From Arthrobacter sp. JZ12 (lineage in GTDB: Bacteria > Actinomycetota > Actinomycetes > Actinomycetales > Micrococcaceae), in assembly GCF_035189165.1 (NCBI RefSeq), contig NZ_CP045246.1, positions 2,790,001 through 2,854,000 on the forward strand: a stretch of 64,000 bases of DNA, written 5' to 3'. The translations under genes and the position numbers were made by a program. The notes under the pieces are model-generated. The model searched no databases. It was not told the DNA's origin and saw only the letters and a list, made by a program, of their open reading frames with translations. Within the stretch, counting starts at the first letter, position 1. Every line of letters starts with the position of its first letter. Of the stretch, positions 3,315 through 48,580 are shown piece after piece.

Positions 3315-3914
3315 ATGAGTAAAGCAATGCGCGTTCTATTCGCTGTCGTCGCCGCCTGTCTCCTGGCGCTGACCGGCTGTGGCGGTTCAGATACCCAGTC
3401 CGAGGACATCCCGGCAGGCCAGGAAACCGCGGCAGAAGCACCGCCCACGACTGGGGAAGCAACTGAAGGAGAGACTGGGGAAGCGACCGAGGGAACGACC
3501 GAGGAACCATCCGACGAGCCGACGGACGGTGAGACTGAGGCGGCCGGGAGCGGCGGCAAGGTCGGAACTCCGCTCGGTGTTGCCGAGACCGACCTCGGCG
3601 AAGTAGTAGTTGACGCTGAAGGCATGGTTCTCTATTACTTCACCCAGGACGAAGCCAACTCCGGCGTCAGCGCCTGCGAGGGCGGGTGCCTCGAAGCCTG
3701 GCCACCGGTCTTGACCGAGACCGAAGAGGTAGAGGCTGAAGGCGTCACCGGGGAGCTCGGAACAATTGAAACCCCCGACGGCCAACTTCAGGTCACCATC
3801 AACGGCATGCCCATCTACTACTACGCAGAAGATGAGGCACCGGGTGACACCAACGGCCAGGGTGTCAATGACGTCTGGTACGTCATCGGGCCGGACGGGA
3901 CCATGATCCAGTAA
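3315..3914 (+). CDS. Secreted-repeat lipoprotein (COG4315 type)
   Basis: The 199-residue product has a lipoprotein signal with lipobox LTGC near residue 22, then an acidic Thr/Glu-rich linker to about residue 75. Two copies of the repeat known as 'secreted repeat of unknown function' follow: VVVDAEGMVLYYFTQDE with a CEGGCLEAWPP block, then a second copy ending YYYAEDEAPGDTNGQG. The function of this family is not established. The start has GGGAGGTAACACAAT just upstream. An ECF-type promoter precedes it and a convergent ECF sigma gene follows. Its stop codon is the first of five in-frame stops in an 18-bp tandem repeat. Confidence 0.85.
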   Translation: MSKAMRVLFAVVAACLLALTGCGGSDTQSEDIPAGQETAAEAPPTTGEATEGETGEATEGTTEEPSDEPTDGETEAAGSGGKVGTPLGVAETDLGEVVVDAEGMVLYYFTQDEANSGVSACEGGCLEAWPPVLTETEEVEAEGVTGELGTIETPDGQLQVTINGMPIYYYAEDEAPGDTNGQGVNDVWYVIGPDGTMIQ

Positions 3915-3988
3915 GGCCTACCGATTCAGTAGGGCCTACCGATTCAGTAGCGCCTACCGATCCAGTAGGGCCGACAGATCCAGTAGCG
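3906..3988 (+). repeat. 18-bp tandem repeat anchored on the lipoprotein stop codon
   Basis: Four full units (3906-3923, 3924-3941, 3942-3959, 3960-3977) and an 11-base partial unit (3978-3988). The first is atccagtaaggcctaccg and spans the last two codons (Ile-Gln) and the stop. Every unit carries TAA or TAG in the gene's own frame, giving stops at 3912, 3930, 3948, 3966 and 3984. Confidence 0.9.
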
Positions 3989-4031: not shown

Positions 4032-4531
4032 ACTACATCCCGGGCGAGCAAGGCAGCCTTCAGCGAGCGCAGCGCATAGTGCAGGCGGGATTTGACCGTC
4101 CCTTCCGGGATGCCGAGGGCCCGGGAAATCTCCGCCGTCGTCTCGCCCTGGAAGTAGAAGTGCTGTAGCACGTCGCGGTGCTCCTGGGACAGGTCGTTGA
4201 GCGCATCGGAAACCAGCCAGGACGTCAGCAGTTGCTCCAGCTCGTCGGTAGAGGGAGTTTCGGGCAGCTCATCCATATCGAACTCATGGCGATGAAATGC
4301 GCTGCGAAACGAGTCCACGAGGGCATTCTTGGCAACTACGAACAGCCAGGCGCGGATCTCCAGATCACTGCGGACACGGATGTCCGGGTGTTCCCAGGCC
4401 CGCATCAGGGTCAATTGGACAACCTCGTCGACAAGGAAAGCATCCGAGGTAAGCCGGCGGACAAAACGCTGCAGGGCACGCAGATGCTTCTCGCTGATAC
4501 TGCTGAGCCAGTCAGCCTGTCCGTCGCCCAT
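4019..4531 (-). CDS. ECF-family RNA polymerase sigma factor
   Basis: The 170-residue product has sigma region 2 in its first half (LVDEVVQLTLMRAWEHP, then LEIRAWLFVVAKNALVDSFR) and region 4 at the end (LSQEHRDVLQHFYFQG, then the helix-turn-helix EGTVKSRLHYALRSLK). Length and layout are those of a minimal ECF sigma factor. The ATG at 4531 is chosen because GGGGGACGAGG lies directly ahead; a longer frame extends to 4651 without extra domain sequence. No anti-sigma gene is adjacent. It converges on the lipoprotein whose upstream region holds an ECF-type promoter, so that gene is a candidate target. Confidence 0.85.
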   Translation of the reverse strand: MGDGQADWLSSISEKHLRALQRFVRRLTSDAFLVDEVVQLTLMRAWEHPDIRVRSDLEIRAWLFVVAKNALVDSFRSAFHRHEFDMDELPETPSTDELEQLLTSWLVSDALNDLSQEHRDVLQHFYFQGETTAEISRALGIPEGTVKSRLHYALRSLKAALLARDVVSGS

Positions 4532-4698
4532 CCTCGTCCCCCGCATTCGGCATCGCCAGAGACTATTGACGCGCCACGGGGTTGGAAAAAGGCTGTCCCC
4601 AGGCGCCATGTCTTCCCATGATGCACCTCCCTGGAGGAATTGGAAGGTCAAGAGTCCACAACGGTAGGGGCTGGAAATCCAGATCGGAACAGCGACGG

Positions 4699-16738: not shown

Positions 16739-16782
16739 GCTCATCGACCGATCATCGGCCGCTCATCGGCCGCTCATCGACC
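16739..16782 (-). repeat. 11-bp tandem repeat anchored on the tryptophan dioxygenase stop codon
   Basis: Four contiguous 11-base units on the minus strand: GGTCGATGAGC, GGCCGATGAGC, GGCCGATGATC, GGTCGATGAGC. The first contains the gene's own TGA (16776-16774). Each unit carries a TGA, and because 11 is not a multiple of three the four stops fall in all three frames. Confidence 0.9.
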
Positions 16783-17628
16783 AATCTCAGTCCGCACCGC
16801 GAAGAGCTCCGGGAAGAAGGTCAGCTCGAGGGCCTTCTGAAGGAACCCCACACCACTTGAGCCGCCTGTCCCCGTCTTCTGCCCGATGGTGCGTTCAACG
16901 GTCTTCAGGTGCCGGAAGCGCCACAGCTGGAAATTGTCCTCCAGGTCCACCAGTTCCTCGCAGGCCTCATACACGTCCCAGTGCTGCGCGGCGTGCTCGT
17001 AGACCTCCTTGTAGACAAGGACCAGTTCGGGGCTGAACTCGTGAGCGTGCGTCACGTCACGGTTCAGCAGCGCCTCCGGAATGCGGTAGCCGCGGCGGGA
17101 GAGGAACCGGATGAACTCGTCGTAGATGCTGGTTTCCGCGAGCAGTCCGGCGAGGAGCCCGTGCGCGTACGGGTCGCTTTCGAACACCTGCAGCATCCCG
17201 GCGTTCTTGTTGCCAAGCAGGAACTCCACGGCGCGGTACTGGTAGGACTGGAAACCGCTGGCCGCCTGCAGCGCGCCGCGGAACTCGGCATATTCCGACG
17301 GCGTCAGCGTGGCGAGCACCGACCACTGCTCCGTCAGCGAACGCTGGATGTGCTTGATCCGTGCGATCCCCTTCATCGCCGCGCGAAGGTCATCGTCGCG
17401 GAGGTGACGCCGCACCGCGCGCAGTTCGTGCAGGACCAGCTTGAGCCAGAGTTCGGAGGTCTGGTGCTGAATGATGAAGAGCATCTCGTCGTGGTGCTCC
17501 GGCCTGCTGACCGGGTGCTGGGCGGAGAGGAGTTCATCCAGCGCAAGGTACGAGCCGTACGTCATCTTCCCCGAGAAGTCCCGCTGGATGCCGTCCTCCA
17601 GCCGGCGGGTGTTCCGCTCAACGCTCAT
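16774..17628 (-). CDS. kynA: Tryptophan 2,3-dioxygenase
   Basis: Heme enzyme opening the indole ring of tryptophan to N-formylkynurenine, first step of the kynurenine pathway. The 284-residue product carries family blocks MTYGSYLALDELLSAQHP, FIIQHQTSELWLKLVLHEL (haem and substrate pocket region near residue 55), ASGFQSYQYRAVEFLLGNKN and GTGGSSGVGFL near the C-terminus. The ATG at 17628 is chosen because it starts just ahead of conserved sequence; TACGCT six bases upstream suggests a leaderless transcript. No other kynurenine gene is in the window. Its stop codon begins an 11-bp tandem repeat. Confidence 0.93.
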   Translation of the reverse strand: MSVERNTRRLEDGIQRDFSGKMTYGSYLALDELLSAQHPVSRPEHHDEMLFIIQHQTSELWLKLVLHELRAVRRHLRDDDLRAAMKGIARIKHIQRSLTEQWSVLATLTPSEYAEFRGALQAASGFQSYQYRAVEFLLGNKNAGMLQVFESDPYAHGLLAGLLAETSIYDEFIRFLSRRGYRIPEALLNRDVTHAHEFSPELVLVYKEVYEHAAQHWDVYEACEELVDLEDNFQLWRFRHLKTVERTIGQKTGTGGSSGVGFLQKALELTFFPELFAVRTEIGR

Positions 17629-17724
17629 AGCTTCAGCGTAGCCAGCAGGACCGCGCCTGTCCGTCGATTCCATTGAGAACTGTCAGAGGGGCGCACTACG
17701 TTGGAAGCAACCTCAGGAGGCCAT

Positions 17725-25518: not shown

Positions 25519-26820
25519 ATGGCTTCCATAACGCTGAAGAACATCGTCAAGCAGTACGGCGACGGTTTTCCCGCCGTCAATGATGTCAGCATCGACATCG
25601 AGGACGGCGAGTTCATCATCCTGGTGGGCCCGTCCGGCTGCGGAAAGTCCACCCTGCTGCGCATGATTGTTGGCCTGGAGGACATCACCTCCGGAGACCT
25701 TTACATCAACGGTGAGCGGGTCAACTCCAAAGCCCCGCGTGACCGCAACCTGGCCATGGTGTTCCAGAACTATGCGCTCTACCCGCACCTGACGGTCTTC
25801 GAGAACATTGCCTTCCCGTTGCGTCTGGCAAAGGGCAAGCATAGCGAGGATGAGGTGCAGCGGCTGGTGACGGAGGCGGCGGCCACCCTTGAGCTGACCG
25901 ACCATCTGCAGCGCAAGCCCGCGAACCTCTCCGGCGGCCAGCGGCAGCGCGTGGCCATGGGGCGGGCCATCGTCCGCCACGCGGATGCGTTCCTGTTCGA
26001 TGAGCCGCTGTCCAACCTCGACGCTAAGTTGCGTGGACAGATGCGCTCTGAGATCTCTCAGATGCAGAGGCGCCTTGGCACCACCTCCATCTACGTCACC
26101 CACGACCAGACGGAGGCTATGACCCTCGGAGACCGGGTAGCCGTCCTCAAGAAGGGCGTGCTGCAGCAGATAGCCTCACCGCGCGAGCTCTACGAGCAGC
26201 CGGTCAACCTCTTCGTTGCGGGTTTCATCGGCTCCCCCTCGATGAACTTCCTGCCTGCCACCATTGAGAACGGCAAGCTGCGGACCTCCCTCGGCGATCT
26301 TGAGATCCCCGAGGACCGGATCGCGAAGGCCTCCGGGCACAAGGTGGTTTTGGTGGGCGTCCGCCCTGAGTTCTTCGAGGACGCCAAGCTGGTCGACGAA
26401 GCCAAGCGGCCGTACGGCTCGACATTCAGGGCAACCCTGACGCACACCGAGTGGCTGGGCAACGAGCAATACGGCTACATCAATTTCGATCCCTCACCCG
26501 AGGTTCGGGAGCTGCTGAACAACCTTGCGCGCGACATGGACGCCGATGAGCTGCGGCCCCAGGTGGTCGTAACCCTCGATGCTGCCAGCCGCATTCGCGG
26601 GGGCCGGGAGGCGGAGATCTGGGTGGACACCCGCAAGCTCCACCTGTTCGACGCCGAAACCGGTGAAAACCTTACGCGTGACGCCGAAGCAGGAGCAGCC
26701 CTCACTGCCGAGGCGAGCGAGCAGCGAGCTGAAGAGATCGCGACAGCCCGCAACAGCGATGACGCGCGTTCGGCACAGCCCGCCGGCAGCAGCGGAGGCA
26801 GCCACGCCGCGGCAAGCTGA
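25519..26820 (+). CDS. sugC: ATPase of the disaccharide ABC importer (SugC/MsmK-like)
   Basis: 433 residues. Walker A GPSGCGKST (about residues 36-44), signature LSGGQRQR, Walker B FLFDEPLSNLD, and a C-terminal regulatory (TOBE/MalK-like) domain starting near LYEQPVNLFVAGFIGSPSMNF. It hydrolyses ATP to drive uptake. The last 50 residues form an Ala/Glu-rich tail (ending GGSHAAAS) not found in the core family. Weak Shine-Dalgarno (GAGGAAAGAGGATC) lies ahead. The stop codon begins a 13-bp tandem repeat. Confidence 0.93.
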   Translation: MASITLKNIVKQYGDGFPAVNDVSIDIEDGEFIILVGPSGCGKSTLLRMIVGLEDITSGDLYINGERVNSKAPRDRNLAMVFQNYALYPHLTVFENIAFPLRLAKGKHSEDEVQRLVTEAAATLELTDHLQRKPANLSGGQRQRVAMGRAIVRHADAFLFDEPLSNLDAKLRGQMRSEISQMQRRLGTTSIYVTHDQTEAMTLGDRVAVLKKGVLQQIASPRELYEQPVNLFVAGFIGSPSMNFLPATIENGKLRTSLGDLEIPEDRIAKASGHKVVLVGVRPEFFEDAKLVDEAKRPYGSTFRATLTHTEWLGNEQYGYINFDPSPEVRELLNNLARDMDADELRPQVVVTLDAASRIRGGREAEIWVDTRKLHLFDAETGENLTRDAEAGAALTAEASEQRAEEIATARNSDDARSAQPAGSSGGSHAAAS

Positions 26821-26849
26821 CAGGGCAGGTTGAGAGGGCAAGCTGACAG
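26811..26849 (+). repeat. 13-bp tandem repeat anchored on the sugC stop codon
   Basis: Three units, ggcaagctgacag, ggcaggttgagag and ggcaagctgacag, followed by a partial GCAAGCCC. The first spans the last two codons and TGA of sugC. Each unit carries TGA (26818, 26831, 26844), one in each reading frame. Confidence 0.88.
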
Positions 26850-26882
26850 GCAAGCCCACACTGCCATTCCCAGCACCCAGGA

Positions 26883-45853: not shown

Positions 45854-47722
45854 GTGTCCTATCTCCAACCTTACCTGCACGATCTCACCGGTGTCTTCAG
45901 CGCTCCCATCCAGGCGTGGGCCGATCCCACCGGGCAAATCCGGAACGACGGCGCGCAGGGCATCTCCTGCGGTGATGACCGAGTCATCCGCTCCGCTGTC
46001 CTGACGGTCAATGGGCGGGAGCCGGACTGGGTCTCCACGCAGGTCCGTTCGACCCGGCGGATCGATTACCTTCACTTCGTCAGGGTGGAGTCGCAGGTAG
46101 CCGATCCCCTCCTGCACCTGATCCGCAGCCGGAGCGCTGATGCATCCGGCGTAGCGGAGCGGCTCCGCTTGGAATCCGCGTTCGACGTTCCCGTGCAGCA
46201 GCTGGTGAGCCTGGTATTGGAGGCCGACAACGCTCCAATGGAGAGGGTCAAGTCCGGCACCGCGGGCCAGTCGGGACTCTCACTGTCCAGTTCACGGTGG
46301 AACTGGAGGGATGAGGACACGATCGCGGCACTCGAGGCACCCGGAGCGGAAATTGAGTACGACGGCGACCGCGTCACCCTCACCTGGCAGGTGGAGGTGG
46401 CGCCGGGCGGCGCCGTCGAACTGGACTGGCGGCTCACCGTGTCGGATGCAGGCGCACCGATGGTTGCGCCGCGCGGAGCGGAACTGCAAACTCCCGCAGT
46501 CAAAAGCAATGCTCTGCAGCGGCTCCTGAACCGCTCGATCTCGGACCTGAACAGCCTCCGCATGGCCTCGGCCGACCGGCCCGACGACAGCTTCCTCGCC
46601 GCGGGTGCGCCCTGGTTCTTCACCATGTTCGGCAGGGACTCGCTCATCTCTGCGCGCCTGCTTTTGCCCATCGACCAGGCTCTGGCCGGAAGCACCCTCC
46701 GCGCACTTGCGGCCCGGCAGGGCCGGCTTACGGATCCGGACACCGCGGAACAGCCGGGGAAGATCCTGCACGAGGTCCGCCGTGGCACGCTGTCCTTCAC
46801 CGAGGGGAATTCCGGCATCTCGCTTCCCCCTGTCTACTTCGGCACCATCGACGCCACGCCGCTGTGGATTTGCCTGCTTCACGACGCCTGGCGGGCCGGC
46901 CTGCCGGAGCCGGAGGTCATAGACCTCCTGGACAACCTTGAGCGTGCGCTTGCCTGGTTGCGGGACCACGGAGATTCCGACGGCGACGGCTTCCTCGAGT
47001 ACCTCGACGAGAGCGGACACGGCCTCGCCAACCAGGGCTGGAAGGACTCCGGCGACTCAATCCGCTGGCATGACGGATCCCTGGCAGATGGTCCGATTGC
47101 ACTTGCGGAAGTCCAGGCCTATGCGTACGAGGCAGCACTTGGCGGGGCGGCGCTGCTGGATGCCCTCGGCCGGCCCGGCGGCGAGGAGTGGCGGCAGTAC
47201 GCGCACACCCTCCAGGAACGGTTCCGCGAGCAGTTCTGGTGCACCGACCGCGAGGGACCGTACCCGGCCATCGCGCTGGATGCCTCGAAGCGGCCCGTTG
47301 ACGGAGTAGCGAGCAACATGGGCCACCTGCTCGGCACCGGCATCCTGAATGCCGAGGAGTCGGCGCTGGTCGCACGCCGTCTTCTGGATCCCACCATGTT
47401 TTCCGGCTACGGAATTCGGACGGTGTCGACGACGAACGGCGGTTATTGGCCCACGCGCTACCACGCAGGCTCGGTGTGGAGCCACGACACGGGCATGATC
47501 ATCAGCGGGCTCCTCAAGGACGGCTTCGCCGAGGAAGCCGCCGCCCTAGCCGCAGGTCTCCTCAAGGCGGCCGAAGGTTTCAACTGGCGGCTGCCCGAGC
47601 TCTTCGCCGGGCACGCGGCGTCGGAAGTCTGGCCGCCGGTGCCCTATCCGGCGTCCTGCCGCCCCCAGGCGTGGGCGGCGGCGTCGTCGGTTCCTATTGC
47701 CCAGGCGCTGAAGGCGCTGTGA
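45854..47722 (+). CDS. Glycogen debranching-type enzyme (amylo-alpha-1,6-glucosidase-like)
   Basis: 622 residues. The N-terminal glycogen-debranching domain starts QPYLHDLTGVFSAPIQAWAD; the GH-type (alpha/alpha)6 catalytic domain has APWFFTMFGRDSLISARLLLP, then NQGWKDSGDSIRWHDGS, which carries the predicted catalytic acid region, and YHAGSVWSHDTGMIISGLL. Probably trims alpha-1,6 branches or related glucans. The GTG at 45854 has no Shine-Dalgarno, so the start relies on domain sequence and coupling to the upstream gene. Its stop codon begins a 9-bp tandem repeat with eight in-frame TGA codons. Confidence 0.85.
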   Translation: MSYLQPYLHDLTGVFSAPIQAWADPTGQIRNDGAQGISCGDDRVIRSAVLTVNGREPDWVSTQVRSTRRIDYLHFVRVESQVADPLLHLIRSRSADASGVAERLRLESAFDVPVQQLVSLVLEADNAPMERVKSGTAGQSGLSLSSSRWNWRDEDTIAALEAPGAEIEYDGDRVTLTWQVEVAPGGAVELDWRLTVSDAGAPMVAPRGAELQTPAVKSNALQRLLNRSISDLNSLRMASADRPDDSFLAAGAPWFFTMFGRDSLISARLLLPIDQALAGSTLRALAARQGRLTDPDTAEQPGKILHEVRRGTLSFTEGNSGISLPPVYFGTIDATPLWICLLHDAWRAGLPEPEVIDLLDNLERALAWLRDHGDSDGDGFLEYLDESGHGLANQGWKDSGDSIRWHDGSLADGPIALAEVQAYAYEAALGGAALLDALGRPGGEEWRQYAHTLQERFREQFWCTDREGPYPAIALDASKRPVDGVASNMGHLLGTGILNAEESALVARRLLDPTMFSGYGIRTVSTTNGGYWPTRYHAGSVWSHDTGMIISGLLKDGFAEEAAALAAGLLKAAEGFNWRLPELFAGHAASEVWPPVPYPASCRPQAWAAASSVPIAQALKAL

Positions 47723-47785
47723 GCGCTGTGACCGCTGTGACCGCTGTGACCGCTGTGAGCGCTGTGAGCGCTGTGAGCGAACTGA
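47714..47785 (+). repeat. 9-bp tandem repeat of the last two codons plus stop
   Basis: Seven units of SCGCTGTGA (47714-47776: gcgctgtga twice, ccgctgtga three times, gcgctgtga twice) and a degenerate eighth (gcgaactga, 47777-47785). The first unit is the Ala-Leu-stop end of the upstream gene. All eight TGA codons are in the gene's frame. Confidence 0.95.
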
Positions 47786-47801
47786 ACAGCAGCGGATGAA
47801 T

Positions 47802-48179
47802 TCAAGCGCCGGGTTCCGGCTCCGGGCCGAGGAGCCAGCTGAGGGCCTGGGCCTCGTCAGAGAAGTACCGGCTGGGCGTGGCGGCACGGTAGTTGAACGC
47901 AGTCATGACCCTGGCCACCTCATCCGAGCCCAGCACCGCGGTGCGGCTTGAGCAGGTTTCCTCGAGGAGCAGCTCCCTCGCCTCGGTGCTGATGCCGCTC
48001 ACAGCGTCGATGTGCACCAACAGTGGGCGTTTGCAGTCCAGGGAGACCGACTCAACCGCTGACACACTCGCCTGGACATCGGAGAGCTCCATCTGAACCC
48101 CTGGATGCCAGCAGAGCCGCAGGAAGTCGCCCTCGTCGGTCAGGTCGAAGCGCGGCTGCCAGCCGGATGAAGTTGTCAT
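47802..48179 (-). CDS. Small STAS-like protein (DUF7793-like), first copy
   Basis: 125 residues with a mixed alpha/beta pattern: FLRLCWHPGVQMELSDVQASVSAV, RPLLVHIDAVSGISTEARELLLEE, SRTAVLGSDEVARVMTAFNY, RYFSDEAQALSWLL. This resembles STAS/SpoIIAA-like or DUF7793 proteins seen in Arthrobacter, of unknown role. GGGGGGATTTGGAT precedes the ATG at 48179. A paralogue lies directly upstream (48203-48580), pointing to local duplication. Confidence 0.75.
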   Translation of the reverse strand: MTTSSGWQPRFDLTDEGDFLRLCWHPGVQMELSDVQASVSAVESVSLDCKRPLLVHIDAVSGISTEARELLLEETCSSRTAVLGSDEVARVMTAFNYRAATPSRYFSDEAQALSWLLGPEPEPGA

Positions 48180-48202
48180 ATCCAAATCCCCCCACTGGAT
48201 TA

Positions 48203-48580
48203 TCAGTTGGAATGCCCCGGAGTCCGAAGCCAATCGATCGCAGCGGCCGCGGCCGGAAAGTAGCGCGTGGGGAAGGCCGGCTGGTGAACCTCCCTGAAGT
48301 ACTGGGCGATTGTTCGGTCCACTGCCGTCGGTCCCACAATCGCCAGTGCCGACACGTTGAGGTCGTTTGCCAGGATGGCGAGCGCCGCGGCATCGAGCGA
48401 GACCATCGAATTCAGGATCGCCACCATCGGCTCACACACGTCAGGGTTGACTTCTTCGAGCCGCTGGACCAGCTCCCGTGCGTCCCGCTCACTTACCGTG
48501 ACGCCCCTGTTCCACTCCACCCGAACGAACCCGTCGTCACGGCGCAGGACAAACCGGTGCTCCGTCTGATCCGCGCTCAC
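48203..48580 (-). CDS. Small STAS-like protein (DUF7793-like), second copy
   Basis: 125 residues sharing the layout of the neighbouring 47802-48179 product: FVRVEWNRGVTVSERDARELVQRL, PMVAILNSMVSLDAAALAILANDL, SALAIVGPTAVDRTIAQYF, RYFPAAAAAIDWL. Sequence divergence is substantial, so the duplication is not recent. Starts with GTG at 48580 preceded by GGGAGAAGG. Function unknown. Confidence 0.75.
   Translation of the reverse strand: MSADQTEHRFVLRRDDGFVRVEWNRGVTVSERDARELVQRLEEVNPDVCEPMVAILNSMVSLDAAALAILANDLNVSALAIVGPTAVDRTIAQYFREVHQPAFPTRYFPAAAAAIDWLRTPGHSN

What the first reader, a model, noticed from the sequence alone, without database searches (positions are those of the whole stretch)
47714..47785. 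Eight consecutive in-frame TGA stops in a 9-bp repeat
The last codons of the debranching-type gene (Ala-Leu-stop) are repeated seven times plus one degenerate copy, all in frame. Copies alternate between gcg and ccg in the first codon in blocks, suggesting stepwise expansion. It is the clearest example of the stop-anchored repeats and a likely hypervariable locus. Readthrough of one or more TGA would add whole Ala/Pro-Leu units.
Basis: seen in the sequence. Interest (0 to 1): 0.65.

Follow-up and report, generated by a model that had tools for sequence, protein, structure and literature searches.

The report
Slippage-made repeat across a stop codon
A nine-base stretch at the end of an Arthrobacter-type gene has been copied seven times across its stop codon, giving eight stops in a row; it looks like harmless DNA copying slippage of a kind common just after stop codons in this genome, not a new gene-control device.

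Summary
Positions 47714-47785 hold seven near-perfect copies of (G/C)CGCTGTGA plus GCGAACTGA, so eight TGA lie in frame after the glycogen-debranching-type gene at 45854-47722. In-frame stops follow automatically from a 9-bp unit. Congeneric orthologues stop at the same codon without a repeat, so the array arose recently in this lineage. Imperfect 9-mers flank it on both sides, as expected for a slippage seed or decayed edge copies.

In 1.26 Mb of this genome, tandem arrays lie six times more densely within 60 nt after stops than elsewhere between genes. Nineteen arrays span a stop; one spans a start. Units differ at every locus, periods at stops show no preference for multiples of three, and orthologues lack the arrays. 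Stop-spanning frequency equals that expected at mean intergenic density. In-frame extra stops are not enriched genome-wide, and array gaps fold no better than other gaps.

Best reading: neutral slippage minisatellites, tolerated because duplication across a stop leaves the protein unchanged. Readthrough, fail-safe stops and terminator function lack support. Strain-level hypervariability is plausible but untested. New member of a known kind; modest interest.

The parts
45854..47722 (+). Host gene: glycogen-debranching / amylo-alpha-1,6-glucosidase-type protein, 622 aa, ending ...QALKAL-stop
   Evidence: ORF list; Pfam GDE_N_bis 5e-22, MGH1-like_GH 2e-12, GDE_C 5e-7
47705..47713 (+). Upstream imperfect unit GCGCTGAAG (Ala-Leu-Lys codons), 6 of 9 matches to the unit: probable slippage seed
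   Evidence: read directly; seed role is inference
47714..47776 (+). Seven tandem copies of (G/C)CGCTGTGA, pattern G,G,C,C,C,G,G; the first copy holds the true stop 47720-47722
47777..47785 (+). Degenerate eighth copy GCGAACTGA with the eighth in-frame TGA
47723..47801 (.). 79-bp gap between two convergent stop codons, almost filled by the array
47802..48233 (-). Convergent neighbour, 143-aa DUF7793 protein
   Evidence: Pfam PF25056 8e-10

Best explanation
The array is a young 9-bp minisatellite. A chance 9-nt period at the gene end (GCGCTGAAG GCGCTGTGA GCGAACTGA) allowed strand slippage, or misaligned repair, during replication to duplicate units repeatedly. The duplicated DNA lies beyond the first stop codon, so the protein does not change and selection does not remove it. 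The gap between two convergent genes has no promoter or ribosome-binding site to damage, so such arrays persist there until they decay or collapse. The eight in-frame TGA are a by-product of the unit length. Shown: the array, its recency, its absence from orthologues and the genome-wide concentration of unrelated arrays just after stops. Inferred: slippage as the process, and neutrality.
For: Orthologues in about ten congeneric genomes stop at the same codon, or within a few codons of it, with no repeat. Own-genome arrays (TRF score 45 or more) number 29 in 32.5 kb within 60 nt after stops (0.89/kb), against 0.15/kb in other intergenic DNA, 0.09/kb in CDS and 0.032/kb in resampled sequence. 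Arrays spanning stops number 19, against 19.9 expected at mean intergenic density; one spans a start. Stop-spanning arrays have periods that are multiples of 3 in 13 of 34 cases, while CDS arrays have them in 223 of 250. Unit sequences differ at every locus. None of 8 orthologous ends of other array genes has an array, and the protein end is unchanged in 7 of 8. The same gene has independently acquired unrelated stop-spanning arrays in a Leifsonia (18 bp) and a Micromonospora (9 bp) among others. MutS is absent and NucS present; NucS does not correct indels (PMC8228993).
Against: The concentration within 60 nt after stops is stronger here (6-fold over other intergenic DNA) than in four relatives together (1.4-fold, not significant). 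Pure neutrality does not by itself explain why this genome differs. This array's RNA folds somewhat better than shuffles on the minus strand. Slippage was not observed directly.
Confidence: 0.82

Rival explanations
1. Fail-safe stops: selection keeps extra in-frame TGA codons to block readthrough into the convergent antisense region.
For: Eight consecutive in-frame TGA, the leakiest stop, at the locus.
Against: Genome-wide, the 24 codons after stops carry about as many in-frame stops (about 0.57 per gene) as out-of-frame ones (about 0.56; derived). Most stop-spanning arrays are not a multiple of 3. A survey of eubacteria found no evidence of selection for additional stops (PMC6764699).
Confidence: 0.05
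2. The array serves as, or replaces, a two-way transcription terminator or RNA-stability hairpin between the two convergent genes.
For: Minus-strand fold of the region z = -2.6; gap-only fold z about -2 (+) and -3.4 (-). Some orthologous gaps hold clear hairpins.
Against: Convergent gaps with arrays fold no better than gaps without (Mann-Whitney P = 0.84, 11 vs 88 gaps). No intrinsic terminator was called in the array and no Rfam family matched. Several relatives without the array keep the gene pair.
Confidence: 0.08
3. Programmed readthrough or reinitiation: ribosomes pass the TGAs adding Ala/Pro-Leu units, or restart at the GTG overlapping the first TGA (GTGA) and make a short (S/T)AV-repeat peptide.
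For: Frame +2 is open through the array to 47799, and GAAGG lies a few bases upstream of GTG 47719.
Against: Readthrough would need up to eight suppressions in a row. Orthologues have no such extension or frame. No Pfam match for the overlapping frame.
Confidence: 0.02
4. Assembly or sequencing artefact: the copy number was inflated during assembly.
For: Short tandem repeats are error-prone in assembly; no reads were available.
Against: Internal unit variants (G2 C3 G2) and a degenerate end unit. A 72-bp array is shorter than any ordinary read. Similar arrays occur at many loci and in independent assemblies.
Confidence: 0.03

Closest known systems
Bacterial VNTR / minisatellite loci, including mycobacterial MIRU-VNTR
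   Same: Head-to-tail short units in intergenic DNA at gene ends of actinobacteria, with expected copy-number change.
   Different: MIRUs are units of roughly 40-100 bp scattered over about 41 sites of one genome (PMC2734929). Here the unit is 9 bp and unique to one locus, and other loci have unrelated units.
Tandem repeats of archaeal Borg elements (PMC9879509)
   Same: Recent, independently formed arrays with flanking partial repeats. [quoted passage not shown]
   Different: Borg units are perfect and A-enriched on extrachromosomal elements. These are GC-rich, imperfect and chromosomal in a bacterium.
TAACTGA heptamer repeats of Beggiatoaceae (PMC4679880)
   Same: Tandem repeats carrying stop codons near gene ends; some overlap the upstream stop.
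   Different: One conserved heptamer genome-wide, mostly just upstream of start codons, with a proposed regulatory role. Here there is no shared motif and the arrays follow stops.

Membership tests
Slippage-type minisatellite (VNTR-like locus) | Head-to-tail short units beyond chance | tested here: met
   TRF period 9, 7.3 copies, score 111; resampled background 0.032 arrays/kb
Slippage-type minisatellite (VNTR-like locus) | Recent and lineage-specific | tested here: met
   absent from congeneric orthologues
Slippage-type minisatellite (VNTR-like locus) | Copy number varies between strains | not testable with these tools
   no second genome of the species held; closest congener about 84% protein identity
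Interspersed repeat family (MIRU-like / TAACTGA-like) | Same unit at many loci of the genome | tested here: not met
   doubled-unit pattern found only here in 3.3 Mb; other arrays have different units
Fail-safe tandem stop codons | Excess of in-frame extra stops genome-wide | tested here: not met
   in-frame about equal to out-of-frame
Intrinsic terminator | GC-rich hairpin followed by T run, or exceptional fold for such gaps | tested here: not met
   no terminator called in the array; array gaps not more structured than other gaps

The most novel reading that the evidence does not exclude
In this genome tandem duplication is actively concentrated just after stop codons, especially between closely spaced convergent genes. 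The cause would be a local mutational process, such as head-on transcription or replication-fork stalling at transcript ends in a bacterium lacking MutSL, and not merely relaxed selection. Gene ends would then be duplication hotspots that lengthen intergenic gaps and, when stops decay, seed new C-terminal tails.
Probability: 0.15. Interest if true: 0.55.

Novelty: new member of a known kind. Interest (0 to 1): 0.3.

Why it matters
The locus itself is probably neutral and at most useful as a strain-typing marker. The broader pattern is a clean example of how a stop codon protects against the cost of DNA duplication: coding arrays are almost always multiples of three, and arrays across stops are not. 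The 6-fold concentration after stops in this genome, weaker in relatives and with almost no arrays in a 300-kb E. coli sample, gives a testable question about where short duplications arise in actinobacteria that lack MutS mismatch repair.

Tried and rejected
Looked for the unit elsewhere in the genome: none. Looked for a shared motif among stop-anchored arrays: units all differ. Tested in-frame preference, fail-safe stops, and fold or terminator role: none supported. Orthologous ends of the 3905-3986 array could not be read because loci were not cut out. No second strain of the species was found, so copy-number polymorphism is untested. Literature searches found no report of this pattern for Arthrobacter, but the library lacks many subscription papers.

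Full report
OBSERVATION. TRF gives period 9, 7.3 copies, 96% match, score 111. The first TGA (47720-47722) ends a 622-aa ORF starting at 45854 whose best domains are GDE_N_bis, MGH1-like_GH and GDE_C, i.e. a glycogen-debranching / amylo-alpha-1,6-glucosidase-type enzyme. The next gene is convergent (47802-48233, minus strand, DUF7793), so the array nearly fills a 79-bp stop-to-stop gap. The doubled unit occurs nowhere else in the 3.3-Mb genome. Of 1056 gene ends examined in this genome, it is the only one with seven extra in-frame stops in the next 24 codons. Because the unit is 9 bp, in-frame stops are automatic.

WHERE IT IS. The window lies in a single-contig genome of 3,307,057 bases, about 64% GC. 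Contigs of several same-genus handles have the same lengths as records titled Arthrobacter (sp. H5, sp. Leaf234, an uncultured isolate), so this is an Arthrobacter-type actinobacterium. That taxonomic step is an inference from matching contig lengths.

RECENCY. Orthologues in the genus (71-84% protein identity) mostly end ...QALGGL or ...QALGAL at the same codon and have no repeat; the exceptions end within a few codons of it, again with no repeat. The array therefore arose after the split from those lineages and did not change the protein end. Both flanks carry imperfect units at the same 9-nt spacing, GCGCTGAAG upstream and GCGAACTGA downstream, each 6 of 9 to the unit. These look like a seed (Ala-Leu-Lys-Ala-Leu codons giving a chance 9-nt period) or decayed edge copies. 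The block order G2 C3 G2 fits stepwise, sometimes multi-unit, slippage.

THE GENERAL PATTERN. I sampled 1.26 Mb of this genome and 0.4 Mb each of four same-genus genomes, called genes with a dicodon model, and ran TRF. At TRF score 45 or more, the own genome has 29 arrays centred in intergenic DNA within 60 nt after a stop (32.5 kb; 0.89/kb) and 11 in the remaining 74.8 kb of intergenic DNA (0.15/kb; ratio 6.1, P about 5e-8). CDS has 0.09/kb and Markov-1 resampled sequence 0.032/kb. Convergent near-stop DNA is densest (1.54/kb). Four relatives together show 0.40 versus 0.28/kb (not significant), with large spread between genomes (0.11 to 0.67/kb near stops). A 300-kb sample of E. coli K-12 had a single intergenic array and none spanning a stop. 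Nineteen own arrays span a stop and one a start; at the mean intergenic density 19.9 would be expected at either. Stops therefore behave as unconstrained DNA, while starts are protected.

TESTS OF FUNCTION. (a) In-frame effect: stop-spanning arrays have a period that is a multiple of three in 13 of 34 cases (1/3 expected by chance, P = 0.59), against 223 of 250 CDS arrays. Almost only length-in-frame arrays survive inside genes, and no such filter acts across stops. (b) Fail-safe stops: in-frame stops in the 24 codons after the stop average about 0.57 per gene, out-of-frame about 0.56 (my arithmetic). A published survey likewise found no evidence for selection of additional stops in eubacteria (PMC6764699). 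(c) Terminator or RNA fold: this array folds moderately well on the minus strand, but array gaps as a class are no more structured than other convergent gaps (P = 0.84), no terminator is called in the array and no Rfam family matches. (d) Shared motif: every locus has its own unit. (e) Conservation: none of 8 readable orthologous ends of other array-bearing genes has an array, and in 7 of 8 the protein end is unchanged.

INDEPENDENT RECURRENCE. Among about 77 readable orthologues from other actinobacteria and a few other genomes, five have unrelated arrays spanning the same gene's stop and three more begin within 5 nt after it. The most striking is Leifsonia sp. CL147 (L147), an 18-bp unit with five in-frame TGA. 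Micromonospora fulviviridis (L188) has a 9-bp unit. Other Leifsonia orthologues (L145, L155, L189) lack it. Such arrays arise repeatedly and independently.

MECHANISM. The best explanation is replication slippage or misaligned repair on a chance seed, tolerated because copies lie beyond the first stop. The genome has NucS and no detectable MutS, and NucS-type repair does not correct indels (PMC8228993). This is at most permissive, since 9-nt loops are not typical MutS substrates either (background knowledge). What remains unexplained is why the near-stop excess is so much stronger here than in most of its relatives. Relaxed constraint in short convergent gaps is the simplest answer; a local duplication hotspot is the more novel one.

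CLOSEST KNOWN. Mycobacterial MIRU-VNTR (PMC2734929), Borg tandem repeats, which may also begin within ORF ends and have flanking partial repeats (PMC9879509), and the TAACTGA repeats of Beggiatoaceae (PMC4679880). It looks like a VNTR locus. Strain polymorphism, the defining VNTR property, could not be tested.

VERDICT. Observation confirmed, interpretation partly supported, new member of a known kind, interest 0.3.

Noticed in passing
window 3905-3986: 18-bp array (4.6 copies) repeating the last codons and stop of a 199-aa ORF (3315-3914): ATCCAG-TAA then four in-frame TAG copies; its gap is also strongly structured (z about -5 to -6).
   Followed up: partly
window 16741-16786: 11-bp array (4.2 copies, TGAGCGGCCGA-type) over the stop of a minus-strand gene at 16774-17673; unit not a multiple of three.
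   Followed up: partly
window 26811-26855: 13-bp array over the stop of the gene ending at 26820.
   Followed up: partly
L147 around 4470-4660: Leifsonia sp. CL147 orthologue of the debranching gene has an independent 18-bp array with five in-frame TGA across its stop.
   Followed up: yes
window 47802-48580 (minus strand): Two adjacent, slightly overlapping DUF7793 (PF25056) genes, probably a tandem paralogue pair; function unknown.
   Followed up: no
window 47719-47799, + strand: GTG overlapping the first TGA (GTGA) with GAAGG just upstream opens a short (S/T)AV-repeat frame through the array; probably accidental.
   Followed up: no
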